A DNA stretch of 64,000 nt, from positions 3,375,001 through 3,439,000 of the forward strand of contig NZ_CP034783.1 in NCBI RefSeq assembly GCF_006094435.1, read 5' to 3'. The translations under genes and the position numbers were made by a program. Within the stretch, counting starts at the first letter, position 1, and each line of letters opens with the position of its first letter. Below the pieces are notes generated by a model that was not told where the DNA came from, searched no databases, and saw nothing but the letters and a program-made list of their open reading frames with translations. Below are positions 14,125-59,689 of the stretch, piece by piece. This stretch comes from Pseudomonas sp. MPC6. Its GTDB lineage: Bacteria; Pseudomonadota; Gammaproteobacteria; Pseudomonadales; Pseudomonadaceae.

Positions 14125-14490
14125 ACCCAGTCCTTGGCTGAGGTCAGCTGTCCAAGGTTGTGAAGCCACGTCGGCAGTCTTAAAGAAAAGACCCTCAATG
14201 AAACGAAAAATTTGGAATGAGGGATGACATTTCACTGAAAGCCGTTTTTGTGGCTTACATTGGCCGAAATACCAGTCGCCACCAGCAATGAAAATTTGTG
14301 TCGAAGATGGTGGAGGCGTTCTGCTAGAAGTCGTGTAATTTATGTTTAGATGCAGTTGGATTGACGAGAATCGAAACGATTGCAATGGACGCACCCAGAT
14401 TTGTAATTAAGGGCTTTCTCTTTCGTCAAATTTTTATGTTTATTGGTGGTTTCGTGTGATGTTAATGCACTGATTACATCTAGATAATTC
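14125..14490. other. Intergenic region between tspO and mvaT
   Basis: 366 bases between divergent genes; no gene seen. It is AT-rich toward mvaT (ATTAATTAAG-like runs) and must contain promoters for both neighbours. Confidence 0.5.
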
Positions 14491-14856
14491 ATGTCCATTC
14501 TCGCAGAATACCGCCAACTCGAAAAACACCTCGCCGAGCAACTCCAAGCGCTCGAAGCCCTGAAAGGTGATGCTGGCCTGAAGCAAGAAATTGAATTTGA
14601 ATCGAAGTTGCGCGCATTGCTCGCTAAGTACGGTTATAGCCTGCCGAACGTGATCAACCTGCTTGATCCTCAGGCTGGCCGTCGCGCTCCTGTCGACTTG
14701 TCCAATGCCGGCACTCGTAAGCCTCGCGAAATGAAGGTCTACAAAAATCCAGAGACCGGAGAAGTCATTGAGACGAAGGGCGGCAACCACAAAATTCTGA
14801 AGGAATGGAAAGCGAAATACGGTTCCGACACCGTGGAGTCGTGGCTCGCCAAGTGA
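14491..14856 (+). CDS. mvaT: MvaT-family H-NS-like xenogeneic silencer
   Basis: 121 residues. An N-terminal coiled coil (ILAEYRQLEKHLAEQLQALE) serves dimerisation and oligomerisation. The C-terminal DNA-binding part has KVYKNPETGEVIETKGGNHK and ends LKEWKAKYGSDTVESWLAK, the MvaT/MvaU signature. These proteins coat AT-rich, often horizontally acquired DNA and silence it. A terminator follows. A decayed second mvaT lies at 16835-17055. Pseudomonas usually carries two or more paralogues, so this may be mvaT or a relative such as mvaU or mvaV. Confidence 0.9.
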   Translation: MSILAEYRQLEKHLAEQLQALEALKGDAGLKQEIEFESKLRALLAKYGYSLPNVINLLDPQAGRRAPVDLSNAGTRKPREMKVYKNPETGEVIETKGGNHKILKEWKAKYGSDTVESWLAK

Positions 14857-14874
14857 TTTTGGTTTGAGTACAAG

Positions 14875-14900
14875 AAAAGGCCCATCAGGGCTTTTTTTTT
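14875..14900 (+). terminator. Terminator of mvaT
   Basis: AAAAGGCCC, loop ATCA, GGGCTTTT followed by a long T run. Confidence 0.85.
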
Positions 14901-14916
14901 GTTATCGGTTTTTTAG

Positions 14917-15300
14917 TCAGTCTGAGGGCGGCGGCTTTCCATTTACCATTTGAGATCCTTTAAAGCGGCGCCTCCGGATTACGCCCAAACACTCGACTGT
15001 ATTCGGCCTCGCAATCTGTTCGGTAAACTCCCCCCAACCACTGCGCCCCACCACCGTCGCCACGCTGTCTCCGATGGTGTCGCAGGTGGCAATGGCCATG
15101 ACCATGGACATAAAACTGTATACGCCAAACAGTAGGGCTAGGCCTTCCAATGGTAGTACACCAATTGCTGTCACTGTAGCGGCGAACACGACGAAGCTGC
15201 CGCCGGACACCGCTGTTGCGCCCTTGGACGTCACCAGCATGATGGCGCTGGTGCGTGCGGTGCTGAAACCGGCAAAACCCCCATACCCTCAATTAAAGCT
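14917..15300 (-). pseudogene. Dicarboxylate/amino acid:cation symporter, C-terminal remnant
   Basis: The reverse frame carries MLVTSKGATAVSGGSFVVFA, LPLEGLALLFGVYSFMS and IGDSVATVVG. These match the last three conserved blocks of DAACS transporters such as DctA/GltP (LTSKGAAGV.G..F.VLAAT, GLALILG...FM, GNGVATVV). The frame is closed upstream by TGA at about 15288, and only the C-terminal quarter of a 440-residue protein is present. An IS element begins 55 bases further on. It is non-functional. Confidence 0.75.
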
Positions 15301-15391
15301 AAAAGACTTCCTCTGAACCTATGCAGAATTTCTAGCCGTGTATAGGAATCGCGGTGGACTTGCCCCTACAAAACCGGACACCAACTCCCTG

Positions 15392-16267
15392 TTAAATTGA
15401 TGCTACTGCCAAACGCCTGAATTCCCTCGGCGAGCGATAGTTTAAGGCGCTGTGCGGATGCTGCTCGTTGTAATGTTCAAAGGCAATTGCCAGGTTACGC
15501 AGCGCTGTTTTTCGATCCGGCTTGGGCATGTGCGCCACGTAATCACGTTTGATCGTCTTCACGAAGCTCTCTGCCATGCCGTTGCTCTGCGGGCTGCGTA
15601 CTGGGGTGGTCACCGGCTGCAAGCCGATCTGACGAGCAAACAGGCGCGTCTGTTCAGCCGTGTATGCCGAGCCGTTATCGCTTAGCCACTGCACCGGCGT
15701 TGTCGGCAGTTGATCACCAAAACGCTTCTCCACGCTTTCCAGCATCAAGTCGCGGATATCATCGCCGCTGTACCCGGTCGGGCTCGCGACCCAGCCGATG
15801 GCTTCGCGGTCGCAGCAGTCCAGGGCGAAGGTCACGCTCAGTTTGGCACCGTCCTCACAACGGAACTCAAAGCCGTCCGAGCACCAACGTGTATCACTGG
15901 TCTTCACGGCAATACGGCCTTCGTGCCGACGCGGCACACCGGGCTGTTTGATCCGCCGCTCAAGCAGCAAGTTGTGATCACGCATGACCCGGTAAACCCG
16001 CTTCACGTTGATCGCTGGCAGCGACTGGGTTTCACGTTCGCGGCGCAGTAATCCCCAGACACGACGGTAGCCGTAGCTGGGCAACTCGCTGACCTGTTGC
16101 TGGATCTCAACCACCAACTCAGCGTCGTCCACAGGTCTGCTTCGCCGTACTTTGGGCGATACCGATTGTTTGATTCGAACCGTTAATTGCGAGCGCGCCA
16201 CACCGAGACATTCGCTGACCAGCTTCACTGGTCGTCCCCCGGCAACAAGGGTGAGTGCGCAATCCAT
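15392..16267 (-). CDS. IS3-family transposase OrfB (copy 1)
   Basis: 291 residues, integrase catalytic core of the rve type. DDE residues can be placed in [23 protein letters not shown] and [18 protein letters not shown]. It overlaps orfA by 43 bases in another frame, so an OrfAB fusion by programmed frameshifting, usual in IS3 elements, is likely. The reading frame is intact. Confidence 0.93.
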
Positions 16268-16617
16268 TTTCGCGACCGGGCGATCTCCACGGCCTCTTTG
16301 AGGATTTCCGCTTCCATCGTCTTTTTGCCCAGCATCCGTTGCAGTTCACGGATTTGCTTGAGCGCATCGCTCAACTCGGAAGCAGGCACCACCGCTTCAC
16401 CGGCACTAACCGCCGACAAGCTGCCGTCCTGATACAGCTTGCGCCACAGGAACAGTTGGTTGGCATTGATGCCGTTGCGCCGAGCCACAACCGAAACACT
16501 TTGTCCTGGCTCAAGACTCTCGCGAACCATGGCCAGTTTTTGCTCTGGGCTCCAGCGGCGCCGCCGCTCTTGGCCCAAAAGCTCCCCACTCTTATCGTTG
16601 CTGTTAGTCATAAACAT
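16225..16617 (-). CDS. IS3-family transposase OrfA (copy 1)
   Basis: 130 residues. It starts with a helix-turn-helix of the IS2 type ([40 protein letters not shown]), then a leucine-zipper-like segment ([20 protein letters not shown]). It binds the terminal repeats. It is intact and identical in appearance to the copy 2 protein. Confidence 0.92.
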
Positions 16618-16791
16618 AACCGTTTGCCTATCCCTTATCGTAAGGGGGAAACGGTGTCCTGTCTTTCATGGGGCTCGTTCATCGACCTTGCTCGCGCTTT
16701 TCACTCTAACAGGAGTGATGTTGGCGCTTACGCATCCCGAATAATTGTTGGCGTGCCGTCTTGCTACACTCCTAGCCTCAGGGCCCAGAGC

Positions 16792-16819
16792 AAAAAAGGG
16801 CCCTCTCAGGGCCCTTTTT
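16792..16819 (-). terminator. Bidirectional terminator beside the mvaT remnant
   Basis: AAAAAAGGGCCC, loop TCTCA, GGGCCCTTTTT. It follows the stop codon of the mvaT remnant on the reverse strand. Confidence 0.85.
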
Positions 16820-16834
16820 GTACTCAAACAAAGA

Positions 16835-17055
16835 TCACTTGGTCAGCCAGGACTCAACGGTGTCAGAGCCGTATTTTGCTTTCCATTCCTTCAGAATCTT
16901 GTGGTTGCCGCCTTTGGTTTCGACCACTTCGCCGGTGTGCGGATTGTTGTAAATCGTCACCGGGCGAGGCTTAAGGTTGCGGTTATGGAATCAACAGCTG
17001 GAGCACGACGGCGGCCAATTCTGTGGATCGAGTAGGTTGATCACATACTTCATAT
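16835..17055 (-). pseudogene. Second mvaT-family gene, frameshifted C-terminal remnant
   Basis: Reverse-strand frames read VINLLDPQ, then after a frameshift GRRRAPAVDS, then after another RNLKPRPVTIYNNPHTGEVV, followed by ETKGGNHKILKEWKAKYGSD and a final SWLTK and stop. This is the C-terminal 70 residues of an MvaT homologue, distinct in sequence from the intact gene at 14491. The N-terminal oligomerisation half is gone. The DNA-binding domain alone is in one open frame of about 49 codons, but no start is evident. Confidence 0.85.
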
Positions 17056-17089
17056 GACGACCACCCCCAACCAAGCTGCAGATGTGGGT

Positions 17090-17380
17090 CTAGGCAACAT
17101 GTCTTTCAGTAGGTTTGAGACCAATCGCGAGTCGCCTTGCACACCCCACGCCCCATGCTAAAGCACGAGTCATTGATTCACCTGGCCTGGAATCCAGCAC
17201 CTCTTCATGCAAAGCCATGCCGCTCGCTGCATACACTCCAATGAACATCTGCGTGTTTCCAGAGGGCGACAGCCTCACTTGGACATCAATGACGGTTCCC
17301 TCGTCTAACGTTTCATCGTGTGTTCGATGGTGAAGCGCCGGATCAACCCATTGCCAAAACACATCCCCTCGAATACGCAT
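17090..17380 (-). CDS. Hypothetical protein (96 aa)
   Basis: The start ATG at 17380 has GGAGGG six bases upstream, a strong ribosome site. The protein reads MRIRGDVFWQWVDPALHHRT and ends with ALAWGVGCARRLAIGLK; it has no signal peptide or membrane helix. A middle section (TVIDVQVRLSPSGNTQMFIG) is beta-rich. The family is not recognised. It lies within the flipped segment, so its neighbours have changed. Confidence 0.6.
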   Translation of the reverse strand: MRIRGDVFWQWVDPALHHRTHDETLDEGTVIDVQVRLSPSGNTQMFIGVYAASGMALHEEVLDSRPGESMTRALAWGVGCARRLAIGLKPTERHVA

Positions 17381-17559
17381 GCCACGCCCTCCTACGACTT
17401 TAGTCTTATATGTCGGAAAACTCACCATAGCGCAGAGATATGCGGAGGCCACGGGTTGCTTCAAGTTTGAATGCTAAATCGGACGATTGGCCGCGTGAAC
17501 GAGCCCCATGAAAGACAGGACACCGTTTCCCCCTTACGATAAGGGATAGGCAAACGGTT

Positions 17560-17952
17560 ATGTTTATGACTAACAGCAACGATAAGAGTGGGGAGCTTTT
17601 GGGCCAAGAGCGGCGGCGCCGCTGGAGCCCAGAGCAAAAACTGGCCATGGTTCGCGAGAGTCTTGAGCCAGGACAAAGTGTTTCGGTTGTGGCTCGGCGC
17701 AACGGCATCAATGCCAACCAACTGTTCCTGTGGCGCAAGCTGTATCAGGACGGCAGCTTGTCGGCGGTTAGTGCCGGTGAAGCGGTGGTGCCTGCTTCCG
17801 AGTTGAGCGATGCGCTCAAGCAAATCCGTGAACTGCAACGGATGCTGGGCAAAAAGACGATGGAAGCGGAAATCCTCAAAGAGGCCGTGGAGATCGCCCG
17901 GTCGCGAAAATGGATTGCGCACTCACCCTTGTTGCCGGGGGACGACCAGTGA
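17560..17952 (+). CDS. IS3-family transposase OrfA (copy 2)
   Basis: 130 residues, the same sequence as the OrfA of copy 1: IS2-type helix-turn-helix ([17 protein letters not shown]) and a C-terminal zipper. The frame is intact. Confidence 0.92.
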
Positions 17953-18785
17953 AGCTGGTCAGCGAATGTCTCGGTGTGGCGCGCTCGCAATTAACGGTTC
18001 GAATCAAACAATCGGTATCGCCCAAAGTACGGCGAAGCAGACCTGTGGACGACGCTGAGTTGGTGGTTGAGATCCAGCAACAGGTCAGCGAGTTGCCCAG
18101 CTACGGCTACCGTCGTGTCTGGGGATTACTGCGCCGCGAACGTGAAACCCAGTCGCTGCCAGCGATCAACGTGAAGCGGGTTTACCGGGTCATGCGTGAT
18201 CACAACTTGCTGCTTGAGCGGCGGATCAAACAGCCCGGTGTGCCGCGTCGGCACGAAGGCCGTATTGCCGTGAAGACCAGTGATACACGTTGGTGCTCGG
18301 ACGGCTTTGAGTTCCGTTGTGAGGACGGTGCCAAACTGAGCGTGACCTTCGCCCTGGACTGCTGCGACCGCGAAGCCATCGGCTGGGTCGCGAGCCCGAC
18401 CGGGTACAGCGGCGATGATATCCGCGACTTGATGCTGGAAAGCGTGGAGAAGCGTTTTGGTGATCAACTGCCGACAACGCCGGTGCAGTGGCTAAGCGAT
18501 AACGGCTCGGCATACACGGCTGAACAGACGCGCCTGTTTGCTCGTCAGATCGGCTTGCAGCCGGTGACCACCCCAGTACGCAGCCCGCAGAGCAACGGCA
18601 TGGCAGAGAGCTTCGTGAAGACGATCAAACGTGATTACGTGGCGCACATGCCCAAGCCGGATCGAAAAACAGCGCTGCGTAACCTGGCAATTGCCTTTGA
18701 ACATTACAACGAGCAGCATCCGCACAGCGCCTTAAACTATCGCTCGCCGAGGGAATTCAGGCGTTTGGCAGTAGCATCAATTTAA
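17910..18785 (+). CDS. IS3-family transposase OrfB (copy 2)
   Basis: 291 residues, the same as copy 1, with the DDE catalytic residues present and 43 bases of overlap with orfA in a different frame. Having two intact identical copies suggests recent transposition and provides the substrate for the observed inversion. Confidence 0.93.
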
Positions 18786-18822
18786 CAGGGAGTTGGTGTC
18801 CGGTTTTGTAGGGGCAAGTCCA

Positions 18823-19656
18823 GTCGAGGCCGGCAACAACCAGCAAGGCACCCTTTATCAGTGGGTGGCAATTCTCACCAGCTCGAAGAACGCGCTCAAA
18901 GGCGTGGGTTTCTTCCTGGGCGGTGCGCTGCTGGCATTGCTGGGCTTTACGCTTGCCGTGCTGGCGATGGCCGCAACTCTGGCGCTCATATGGATAGCCA
19001 GCCTATTCCTGCTGAAGAAAGATCTGGGTAAAGCCAAGGCCAAACCGAAGTTTCGCAACATTCTCTCCAAGAGCCGGGCGATCAATATCCTCTCGGCGGC
19101 GCGGATGTTCCTCTTTGGTGCCCGAGACGTGTGGTTCGTGGTGGCGTTGCCGGTCTACCTGAGCACGGTGTTTGGTTGGGACTTCTGGTTGGTTGGCGGC
19201 TTCTTGGCGGCCTGGGTCATCGGCTATGGCATCGTGCAGTCGTTGGCCCCGAACATCACCGGAAAGAAGCGCGGCCACGTCCCCGATGGGCGAGCTGCCT
19301 TCGTTTGGGCGGCATTGCTGGCAGGTCTGCCTGCGGCAATCGCCCTCGGACTCTCGGTGGGTTAGTCGCCTCACGTTGTGCTGCTGGGTGGATTAATGGT
19401 GTTCGGCGTGCTGTTCGCGGTGAATTCCTCGCTGCACAGCTATCTCATCGTCTCGTATGCCAAAGAAGATGGGGTATCGCTGGATGCAGGGTTCTACTAC
19501 ACGTCCAACGCCTTGGGCCGACTGCTCGGCACCGTGCTGTCCGGCTGGATCTATCAGAGTTACGGATTGGAGGCCTGTTTGTGGGTTTCCACTGCCTTAG
19601 TGTTGCTGGCTGCCCTAATTTCTATCGCCTTACCCAGGCATACCGAGACGATATGA
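18823..19656 (+). pseudogene. arsJ: arsJ, organoarsenical efflux MFS transporter (5' end lost, amber stop)
   Basis: The frame from the IS edge reads VEAGNNQQGTLYQWVAILTS, SKNALKGVGFFLGGALLALL, LFGARDVWFVVALPVYLSTV and, after a TAG at 19363-19365, LLGGLMVFGVLFAVNSSLHS to the end at 19656. These blocks are ArsJ, which exports 1-arseno-3-phosphoglycerate and normally pairs with an arsenate-linked GAPDH (absent here). The N-terminal third is missing beyond the IS. The TAG replaces a codon in the loop before GLMVFGV. The gene is doubly inactivated. Confidence 0.85.
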
Positions 19657-21343: not shown

Positions 21344-22423
21344 TCAGGCCACGGACGGATCACCAAGAAAGGTTGCAATCTCATGGACTGTGCTGCGGGC
21401 TGTGCGTGTTACACCGATCAGCGTGGCGGAAGCCGAACCCGTCCACTCGCCATAGCCCACCAGCCATAGTCTTGGCTCTTGGATCGAGTGAGTGCCTTCG
21501 ACCTCAACACGGCCTTCGGTGTTGATCACCCCCAACGTATCCAGATGCTGAAGTGCCGGCCTGAACCCGGTACACCAGATGACCGCGTCCACTGCGGATT
21601 CGGAACCATCGGCCCACATCACGCCATCGCGAGTGAAACATTCAAATGGGCGTACAGATTTGAGTGCATCACGCTCACGGGCTTCTACAACTGGTGGCAC
21701 CATGACAATGTCTCCCTACCCGCCGACGGGCTGATCAATGACACGCCCCTCCTGCTGAGCTTTCAAGCGCTGAGTGGCACGCTCGAACAGCACCCGTCCA
21801 TCCACTTCATCAGGCAAAAACACCGGCTCAGTAGGAGTTACCCAAGTGCTCTCAGCGACCTTGGATACCTCTGCCAAAATCTGCGCTCCTGAATTGCCCC
21901 CACCCACCACCAAAACCTTCTTGCCAGCAAACGCTTGTGCATCGACATAGTTCGCGGAGTGCAATTGCCGACCGGCGAATAACTCGGCATTAGGGTAGTG
22001 AGGGATATACGGATTGCTCCAGGTGCCGGTAGCGCTGATTACAACCTTGGCATCCCAACATTTGTCGTCAGAACGTACTCGTAAGCCAGACTCTAGACGT
22101 TCCACAGAAACGACCCGAACCGGGCGCTCAACCGGAAATTGGTAGCGCTGTTCATATTGGTTGAGGTAGTCGACCACATGATTTCGTGTGGGGTAACCCT
22201 CTTGCGCGGGTGGCATCATCCAGCCGGGGATCGAACTCCAGGTGGACGGCGAGAATAAACGCAGCGAGTTCCAGCTATGCCGCCAGGCACCACCGGGCTC
22301 TTCCTCTGCGTCGAGGATGACGAACGAGAGTTGAGTTCGACGCAGGAAATACGCTACCGCCAAGGCTGACTGACCCCCACCGATAATAACTACATCTAGT
22401 TGGTCACTGGCCGAATGAGTCAT
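21344..22423 (-). pseudogene. arsO: arsO, flavin-dependent monooxygenase with in-frame amber codon
   Basis: The protein would have 359 residues: a FAD motif [17 protein letters not shown] at the start, a second dinucleotide site [17 protein letters not shown] near residue 165 and [10 protein letters not shown] near residue 280, as in ArsO-type monooxygenases of arsenic clusters. A single TAG at 21716-21718 interrupts it between QPVGG and GDIVMVPPV; the frame is otherwise open. The downstream part could only restart at ATG 21703, giving an incomplete enzyme. It is divergent from nothing obvious; the hupE remnant follows. Confidence 0.85.
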
Positions 22424-49071: not shown

Positions 49072-49160
49072 CCTGTAGGAGCCGGCTTGCTGGCGAAGGC
49101 GTTTTCAAGGGCGGTGCAGGGCCCCAGGCCGCCTTCGCTGGCAAGCCGGCTCCTACAGGG
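49072..49160. repeat. REPIN after the oxidase gene
   Basis: CCTGTAGGAGCCGGCTTGCT paired with its complement about 35 bases further on. Confidence 0.88.
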
Positions 49161-49297
49161 ATTATCGGCGGCTTGATTATCTTCGTTACGGCATCACGCC
49201 CCCAACGCCTCGTTCAACCTTTCGATTTGCTCAATCGCAAGGCACTTCTATATTGAGGGGGTGCTCTGAATTTCCTGTCTCCTGGCGAGTGCGGCCT

Positions 49298-59122: not shown

Positions 59123-59596
59123 CCTTGTAGGCGCTGGCTTGCCAGCGAAGGCGGCCTCAAGCCCTGCATCGCCCATGCAGACGCCTTCGCCAGCAAGCCG
59201 GCTCCTACAGGGATTCGGCGTAGACCACCATTCATTTGTACACCGGTGATCCTTGTAGGAGCTGGCTTGCCAGCGAAGGCGGCCTCAAGCCTTGCAGCGC
59301 CCATGCAGACGCCTTCGCCGGCAAGCCGGCTCCTACAGGGTTTAGCGTTGACCATATCTATCGGTACACCGGTAATCCCTTGTAGGCGCTGGCTTGCCAG
59401 CGAAGGCGGCCTCAAGCCCTGCATCGCCCATGCAGACGCCTTCGCCGGCAAGCCGGCTCCTACAGGGTTTAGCGTTGACCATATCTATCGGTACACCGAT
59501 GATCCCTTGTAGGAGCTGGCTTGCCAGCGAAGGCGGCCTCAAGCCATGCATCGCCCATGCAGACGCCTTCGCCAGCAAGCCGGCTCCTACACAGGG
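59123..59596. repeat. Tandem array of four REPINs
   Basis: Units of about 90 bp at 59123-59212, 59251-59340, 59378-59467 and 59505-59596. Each is CCTTGTAGG(C/A)GCTGGCTTGCCAGCG followed by a near-complement ending GGCTCCTACAGGG. They are separated by 37-38 base spacers (several reading GTTGACCATATCTATCGGTA), giving a period of about 127 bases. This is an amplified array, not isolated REPINs. Confidence 0.9.
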
Positions 59597-59689
59597 TTCG
59601 GCGTTTTTCACAAACCATCAGCAATCAAGCTGGCACTTTCAAATCGACGCCCAACGCCTGGGCAAACGCTTTCACCAGCGGACTGCGCA

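What the first reader, a model, noticed from the sequence alone, without database searches (positions are those of the whole stretch)
15350..18827. Segment flipped between two inverted IS copies, shown by crossed target-site duplications
Two apparently identical 1327-bp IS3-family copies lie in opposite orientation, 814 bp apart. Neither has matching 5-bp flanks, but the two left flanks are complements (CGCGG/CCGCG) and so are the two right flanks (TCGAC/GTCGA). Turning the inner segment around gives perfect duplications for both. It also extends the arsJ frame with codons that fit the ArsJ pattern (KSASKVEAGNNQQG). Chance agreement of two 5-mers is about one in a million. So an inversion by recombination between the copies is well supported, and the ancestral order can be reconstructed.
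Basis: seen in the sequence. Interest (0 to 1): 0.72.

Follow-up and report, generated by a model that had tools for sequence, protein, structure and literature searches.

The report
Small inversion between two IS copies
A 0.8-kb piece of a Pseudomonas chromosome has been turned around between two identical, oppositely facing copies of a mobile element; relatives without the element still carry the older order, so the event is real but of a familiar kind.

Summary
Two identical 1327-bp IS copies lie in opposite orientation 814 bp apart. Neither has its own 5-bp duplication, but the crossed flanks match over exactly 5 bp on both sides. Ends and length are right: 22 of 31 full-length copies of this IS type in other Pseudomonas genomes have perfect 5-bp duplications. 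On the right, only the flipped segment end is in register with arsJ codons, though arsJ is a broken remnant.

The enzyme is not shown. No other full copy was found in the 7.2-Mb genome, which suggests local origin. A wrongly oriented assembly or a live polymorphism is not excluded. This is a well-documented new instance of a known kind of rearrangement.

The parts
15355..16681 (-). IS copy 1 (IS3 family, near IS2 group), transposase 5' end (IRL) facing inwards
17496..18822 (+). IS copy 2, identical and inverted, IRL facing inwards; OrfA 17560-17952, OrfB 17910-18785
15350..15354 (.). CGCGG, left outer flank of copy 1; one copy of the left target duplication
   Evidence: single copy in IS-free G263 and G317
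17491..17495 (.). CCGCG, inner flank of copy 2; the other copy of the left duplication, now inverted
16682..16686 (.). TCGAC, inner flank of copy 1; one copy of the right duplication, now inverted
18823..18827 (.). GTCGA, right outer flank of copy 2; the other copy of the right duplication
16687..17490 (.). inverted inner segment (without the 5-bp flanks)
   Evidence: relatives carry it in the opposite orientation relative to the left outer arm
16687..16701 (-). tail of the segment in register with arsJ codons KSSIK when read in the older orientation
16792..16980 (-). C-terminal mvaT-like remnant inside the segment
   Evidence: (78% to 14711-14899)
17090..17464 (-). 124-codon ORF inside the segment, no family match
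15230..15354 (+). left outer stretch matching the first part of a 69-codon ORF that is whole in IS-free relative G263; the site of the left IS lies inside it
   Evidence: L061:1510-1719
18828..19656 (+). arsJ remnant: about the first third missing, in-frame stop at 19363-19365

Best explanation
An IS3-family element near IS2 inserted at two sites 0.8 kb apart in a decaying stretch of a Pseudomonas chromosome: CGCGG inside a small ORF beside a dctA remnant, and GTCGA in an arsJ remnant. The copies faced opposite ways, and recombination between the identical 1327-bp copies turned the 814 bp between them. Shown: the copies, their ends, 5-bp duplications as the rule for this IS type, the crossed flanks, the older order on the left in relatives, and register with arsJ on the right. 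Inferred: that RecA-type recombination and not the transposase made the flip. I put the inversion itself at about 0.93 and this mechanism at about 0.5. If recombination made it, the segment can flip back and the assembly shows one of two states.
For: Crossed 5-bp flanks on both sides, chance about 1.1e-6. 22 of 31 other full-length copies have own 5-bp duplications at these ends. G263 and G317 lack the IS and join left arm and flipped segment with exactly the 5 bp shared; 38 of 40 nt before the site are identical in both, 28 of 40 in G307 and G288, while 0 of 6000 random stretches reach 22. Flipped segment tail in register with arsJ: mean score 6.31 against 0.31 for the end now facing that way; 5 of 6000 random tails reach it. 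The long identical inverted repeats are good substrates for recombination (established knowledge, recalled).
Against: Two separate insertions of a rare element within 819 bp have a chance of about 2e-4 if sites are random (two full copies found). No genome with two unflipped copies was found. The right junction has no IS-free relative. G262, the most diverged of the five relatives, gives no clear left match (8 of 40 nt ungapped). 9 of 31 other copies lack a duplication.
Confidence: 0.5

Rival explanations
1. One step by the transposase. A single insertion, or a tandem IS dimer with an active IR-IR junction, attacked a second site on the same chromosome in the inverting orientation. The two copies end up at the two ends of the turned segment, in opposite orientation and with crossed duplications. 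As both IRL ends face inwards, the dimer version makes the arsJ site (GTCGA) the older insertion and CGCGG the attacked site (my derivation).
For: Only two full copies found in 7.22 Mb, both here and identical. Passages of PMC9333248 say that copy-out-paste-in elements including the IS3 family are of this type, that dimers were shown for IS2, and that IR-IR junctions gave inversions for IS30. PMC7986276 passages describe inversion by intramolecular replicative transposition for the IS6 family.
Against: No tandem dimer or single-copy precursor seen; the tandem look in G190 has an N letter at each border of the full copy. Simple insertion is held to be the usual product (recalled). A local hop followed by recombination explains the clustering equally well.
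Confidence: 0.38
2. The segment is not fixed in this orientation: the assembler chose the wrong order between two identical 1.3-kb repeats, or the culture holds both orders.
For: Arms identical over 1327 nt with only 814 nt between, which short reads cannot span; no reads are available here.
Against: The genome is in 4 contigs, which suggests long reads that would span the 3.5 kb (inference). This rival concerns the flip's state, not the two insertions.
Confidence: 0.08
3. Two unrelated insertions whose own duplications decayed; the crossed match is chance.
For: 9 of 31 other copies lack a perfect duplication.
Against: Chance about 1.1e-6, and the relatives show the predicted order.
Confidence: 0.01

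Closest known systems
Rearrangement by recombination between identical IS copies, seen as loss of matching duplications
   Same: Described as a frequent cause of missing duplications (PMC11708052, abstract and introduction); same outcome as here.
   Different: The cases in that paper are deletions and duplications in laboratory lines; here it is a 0.8-kb inversion in a wild chromosome, checked against IS-free relatives.
IS30-type dimer (IR-IR junction) intramolecular inversion
   Same: Would give two inverted copies at the ends of a turned segment with crossed duplications (geometry derived by me; inversions and dimers from passages of PMC9333248).
   Different: No dimer or precursor seen here; this element is IS3 family, not IS30.
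IS26/IS6-family intramolecular replicative inversion
   Same: Inversion between IS and target within one replicon (PMC7986276 passages).
   Different: Another family with 8-bp duplications (same passages); this element has 5 bp.
IS2 (IS3 family)
   Same: Nearest NCBIfam models are IS2 TnpA and TnpB; two overlapping frames.
   Different: Below the cut-offs of both IS2 models (177.5 of 229 and 387.3 of 597 bits), so a relative, not IS2.

Membership tests
IS3-family insertion sequence | Two overlapping frames, the second in -1 frame | tested here: met
   OrfA 17560-17952, OrfB 17910-18785, frame difference -1
IS3-family insertion sequence | OrfB matches the IS3 transposase model; D-35-E spacing | tested here: met
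   NF033516 201.4 bits against cut-off 160; 35 residues between D197 and E233
IS3-family insertion sequence | TG...CA ends and short constant target duplication | tested here: met
   TGAAC..GTCCA; 5 bp in 22 of 31 other full-length copies
IS3-family insertion sequence | Programmed frameshift making OrfAB; circle or dimer intermediates | not tested
   needs experiment; slippery site not examined
IS2 itself | Passes the curated cut-offs of IS2 TnpA and TnpB models | tested here: not met
   177.5 of 229 and 387.3 of 597 bits
Inversion by homologous recombination between inverted IS copies | Crossed duplications and the opposite order in IS-free relatives | tested here: met
   (left side); right side only by arsJ register. 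Shared with the transposase route, so not decisive between them.
Inversion by homologous recombination between inverted IS copies | A state with two unflipped copies; dependence on RecA | not testable with these tools
   no sister strain held; needs experiment
Transposase-made intramolecular inversion | Second copy and flip arise together from one copy or a dimer | not testable with these tools
   two full copies found in the genome, both here, is suggestive and no more

The most novel reading that the evidence does not exclude
An IS3-family element made its second copy and the inversion in one step, by attack of a tandem-dimer IR-IR junction on a site 0.8 kb away in its own chromosome: a natural trace of the dimer pathway, which crossed duplications elsewhere may be hiding under the label of homologous recombination.
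Probability: 0.35. Interest if true: 0.35.

Novelty: new member of a known kind. Interest (0 to 1): 0.2.

Why it matters
It is a small, clean example in which an inversion read from crossed duplications alone was borne out by IS-free relatives. It also shows the limit of the method: crossed duplications orient an inversion but do not name the enzyme, and the copy number in the whole genome is a useful extra clue. Functional weight is slight, as the sites lie in a broken arsJ and a small ORF.

Tried and rejected
Compound transposon carrying the segment: rejected, since the outer flanks (CGCGG, GTCGA) are not a duplication of each other and the left site is sequence shared with IS-free relatives.

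Chance match: rejected.

arsJ extension as strong proof: weakened. The segment tail is in register; 5 of 6000 random window tails reach the mean score. Register 0 was best or equal best in 26 of 26 relatives used (tied with another shift in L075 and L076). These 26 of the 83 arsJ loci in hand are related to one another, so they are not 26 independent tests. The similarity is about 20 nt.

Tandem copies of the IS in G190 as support for the dimer route: dropped, because an N letter stands at each border of the full copy in L162.

Right junction in an IS-free relative: not found. The 111 bp 16682-16792 gave no match in plasmids with 119 bp queried and only chance matches elsewhere in the own genome; no listed match covers it (144 genomes each, largely the same ones, lists capped). 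(398 genomes) did not query it. It is not in the stretches of G317, G263 and G307 that I took.

I saw no close inverted pair among the full-length copies listed.

Fifth relative G262: counted as unclear. Not checked: a second 83% copy of the segment in G263 (C6), and the matches of 77% or less.

Papers: PMC11708052 abstract, outline and introduction read; passages of PMC9333248, PMC7986276 and PMC3299598 seen; all others seen in listings only.

Full report
Observation. The window holds two inverted arms, 15355-16681 and 17496-18822, of 1327 nt, 100% complementary and 814 nt apart, without a mismatch. The flanks are CGCGG and TCGAC for the first and CCGCG and GTCGA for the second. No copy has matching flanks of its own. 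The left outer flank equals the reverse complement of the second copy's inner flank, and the right outer flank that of the first copy's inner flank; both matches are exactly 5 bp and the sixth base differs. At the window's base composition the chance of both is about 1.1e-6.

The element. It has two overlapping frames, 17560-17952 and 17910-18785, the second in the -1 frame, and a D and an E with 35 residues between them. The nearest models are IS2 TnpA and TnpB, both below their curated cut-offs, while the general IS3-family model passes its own with OrfB. So it is an IS3-family member near IS2. I fetched 38 stretches around copies from other Pseudomonas genomes; they hold 31 full-length copies, 78-94% identical. 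Of these, 22 have perfect 5-bp duplications at the same ends; 9 have not, one of these with N letters at its borders.

Relatives. Of 398 genomes of the genus searched with 501 bp of the segment, 55 (the own one included) had some match. I examined the five best others: G263 (98% in that search), G317 (93%), G307 (90%), G288 (85%) and G262 (81%). In G263 and G317 the window's left outer arm (from 14482 and 14490 to 15354; 83.5% and 84.2%) runs straight into the flipped segment (17495 back to 16793; 95.0% and 91.2%), and the two alignments overlap by exactly five bases, CGCGG. Over the 40 nt before the site, 38 are identical in both. In G307 and G288 28 of 40 are identical; 0 of 6000 random window stretches reach 22. 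G262 has 8 of 40 without gaps and a local score of 24, which 6 of 2000 random stretches reach, so it counts as unclear. None of the five has an IS at the site. In G263 the site lies inside a 69-codon ORF, so the left IS falls within the matching stretch here.

The right side. arsJ at 18828-19656 is a remnant: its match to the ArsJ model starts at position 123 of 392 and there is an in-frame stop at 19363-19365. A second arsJ, 78% identical, lies elsewhere in the genome. All 80 arsJ loci encode MSAKS, followed mostly by a motif of the type SIKLLVPDS before QQG. Read in the older orientation the segment ends with codons KSASKV in register with KSSIKL. The mean right-anchored score over 26 relatives is 6.31, against 0.31 for the end that faces that way now and 0.0 for the left outer end; 5 of 6000 random window tails reach it. 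So the right side favours the flip too, but the similarity is short, VEAG does not fit the motif, and no IS-free relative with this junction was found. Beyond it, the 111 bp up to the mvaT remnant matched nothing in the searches that included it (lists capped in 8 and 30). An older break had probably joined arsJ to this stretch already (inference).

Mechanism. The inversion is about 0.93 likely. What made it is open. In the rival, the transposase made second copy and flip together. For a tandem dimer inserted at one site, cleavage of its IR-IR junction leaves one free end on each copy; attack on a site in the same chromosome in the inverting sense puts the copies at the two ends of the turned segment, with crossed duplications. 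This geometry is my derivation. The dimer pathway, its citation for IS2 and inversions from IR-IR junctions of IS30 are from passages of PMC9333248; inversion by intramolecular replicative transposition in the IS6 family is from passages of PMC7986276. The inward IRL ends would then make the arsJ site the older one. The own-genome search found only these two full copies in 7.22 Mb (40 of 53 candidates scored); a second random insertion within 819 bp either way has a chance of about 2e-4. This asks for a local event, but a local hop followed by recombination meets it as well. I put recombination at 0.5, the transposase at 0.38, and an assembly or mixed-state effect at 0.08.

What is known. Recombination between identical IS copies is described as a frequent cause of missing duplications (PMC11708052, abstract and introduction). 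The find is a new instance of a known kind. Its interest lies in the clean check against IS-free relatives and in the caution that crossed duplications do not name the enzyme. Interest 0.2.

Noticed in passing
window 18828-19656; G000 C4:3080315-3081131: arsJ here is a remnant (first third missing, in-frame stop at 19363-19365); a second arsJ, 78% identical, lies elsewhere in the same genome.
   Followed up: partly
window 14491-14856 and 16792-16980: A whole mvaT-type gene and, in the inverted segment, a C-terminal mvaT-like remnant; G263 and G317 carry both in the same older order.
   Followed up: partly
window 14917-15300: Decayed remnant of a C4-dicarboxylate transporter (dctA) beside the left IS; the genome has a 79% relative of this stretch at C4:2667228.
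   Followed up: no
window 21344-22423: A flavin monooxygenase-like gene on the - strand appears split into two frames (21716-22423 and 21344-21703).
   Followed up: no
window 59123-59631 and 49072-49168: Four 127-bp repeats in tandem with a related inverted copy 10 kb away.
   Followed up: no
L162 (G190 C5:208850-210774): A full copy of a 93% IS relative between pieces 1-298 and 1030-1327 of the same IS in the same orientation, with a single N letter at each border; nested copy, tandem copies or scaffolding artefact.
   Followed up: partly
window 16682-16792: 111 bp between the mvaT-like remnant and arsJ (in the older order) for which no relative was found in the searches that included it.
   Followed up: partly
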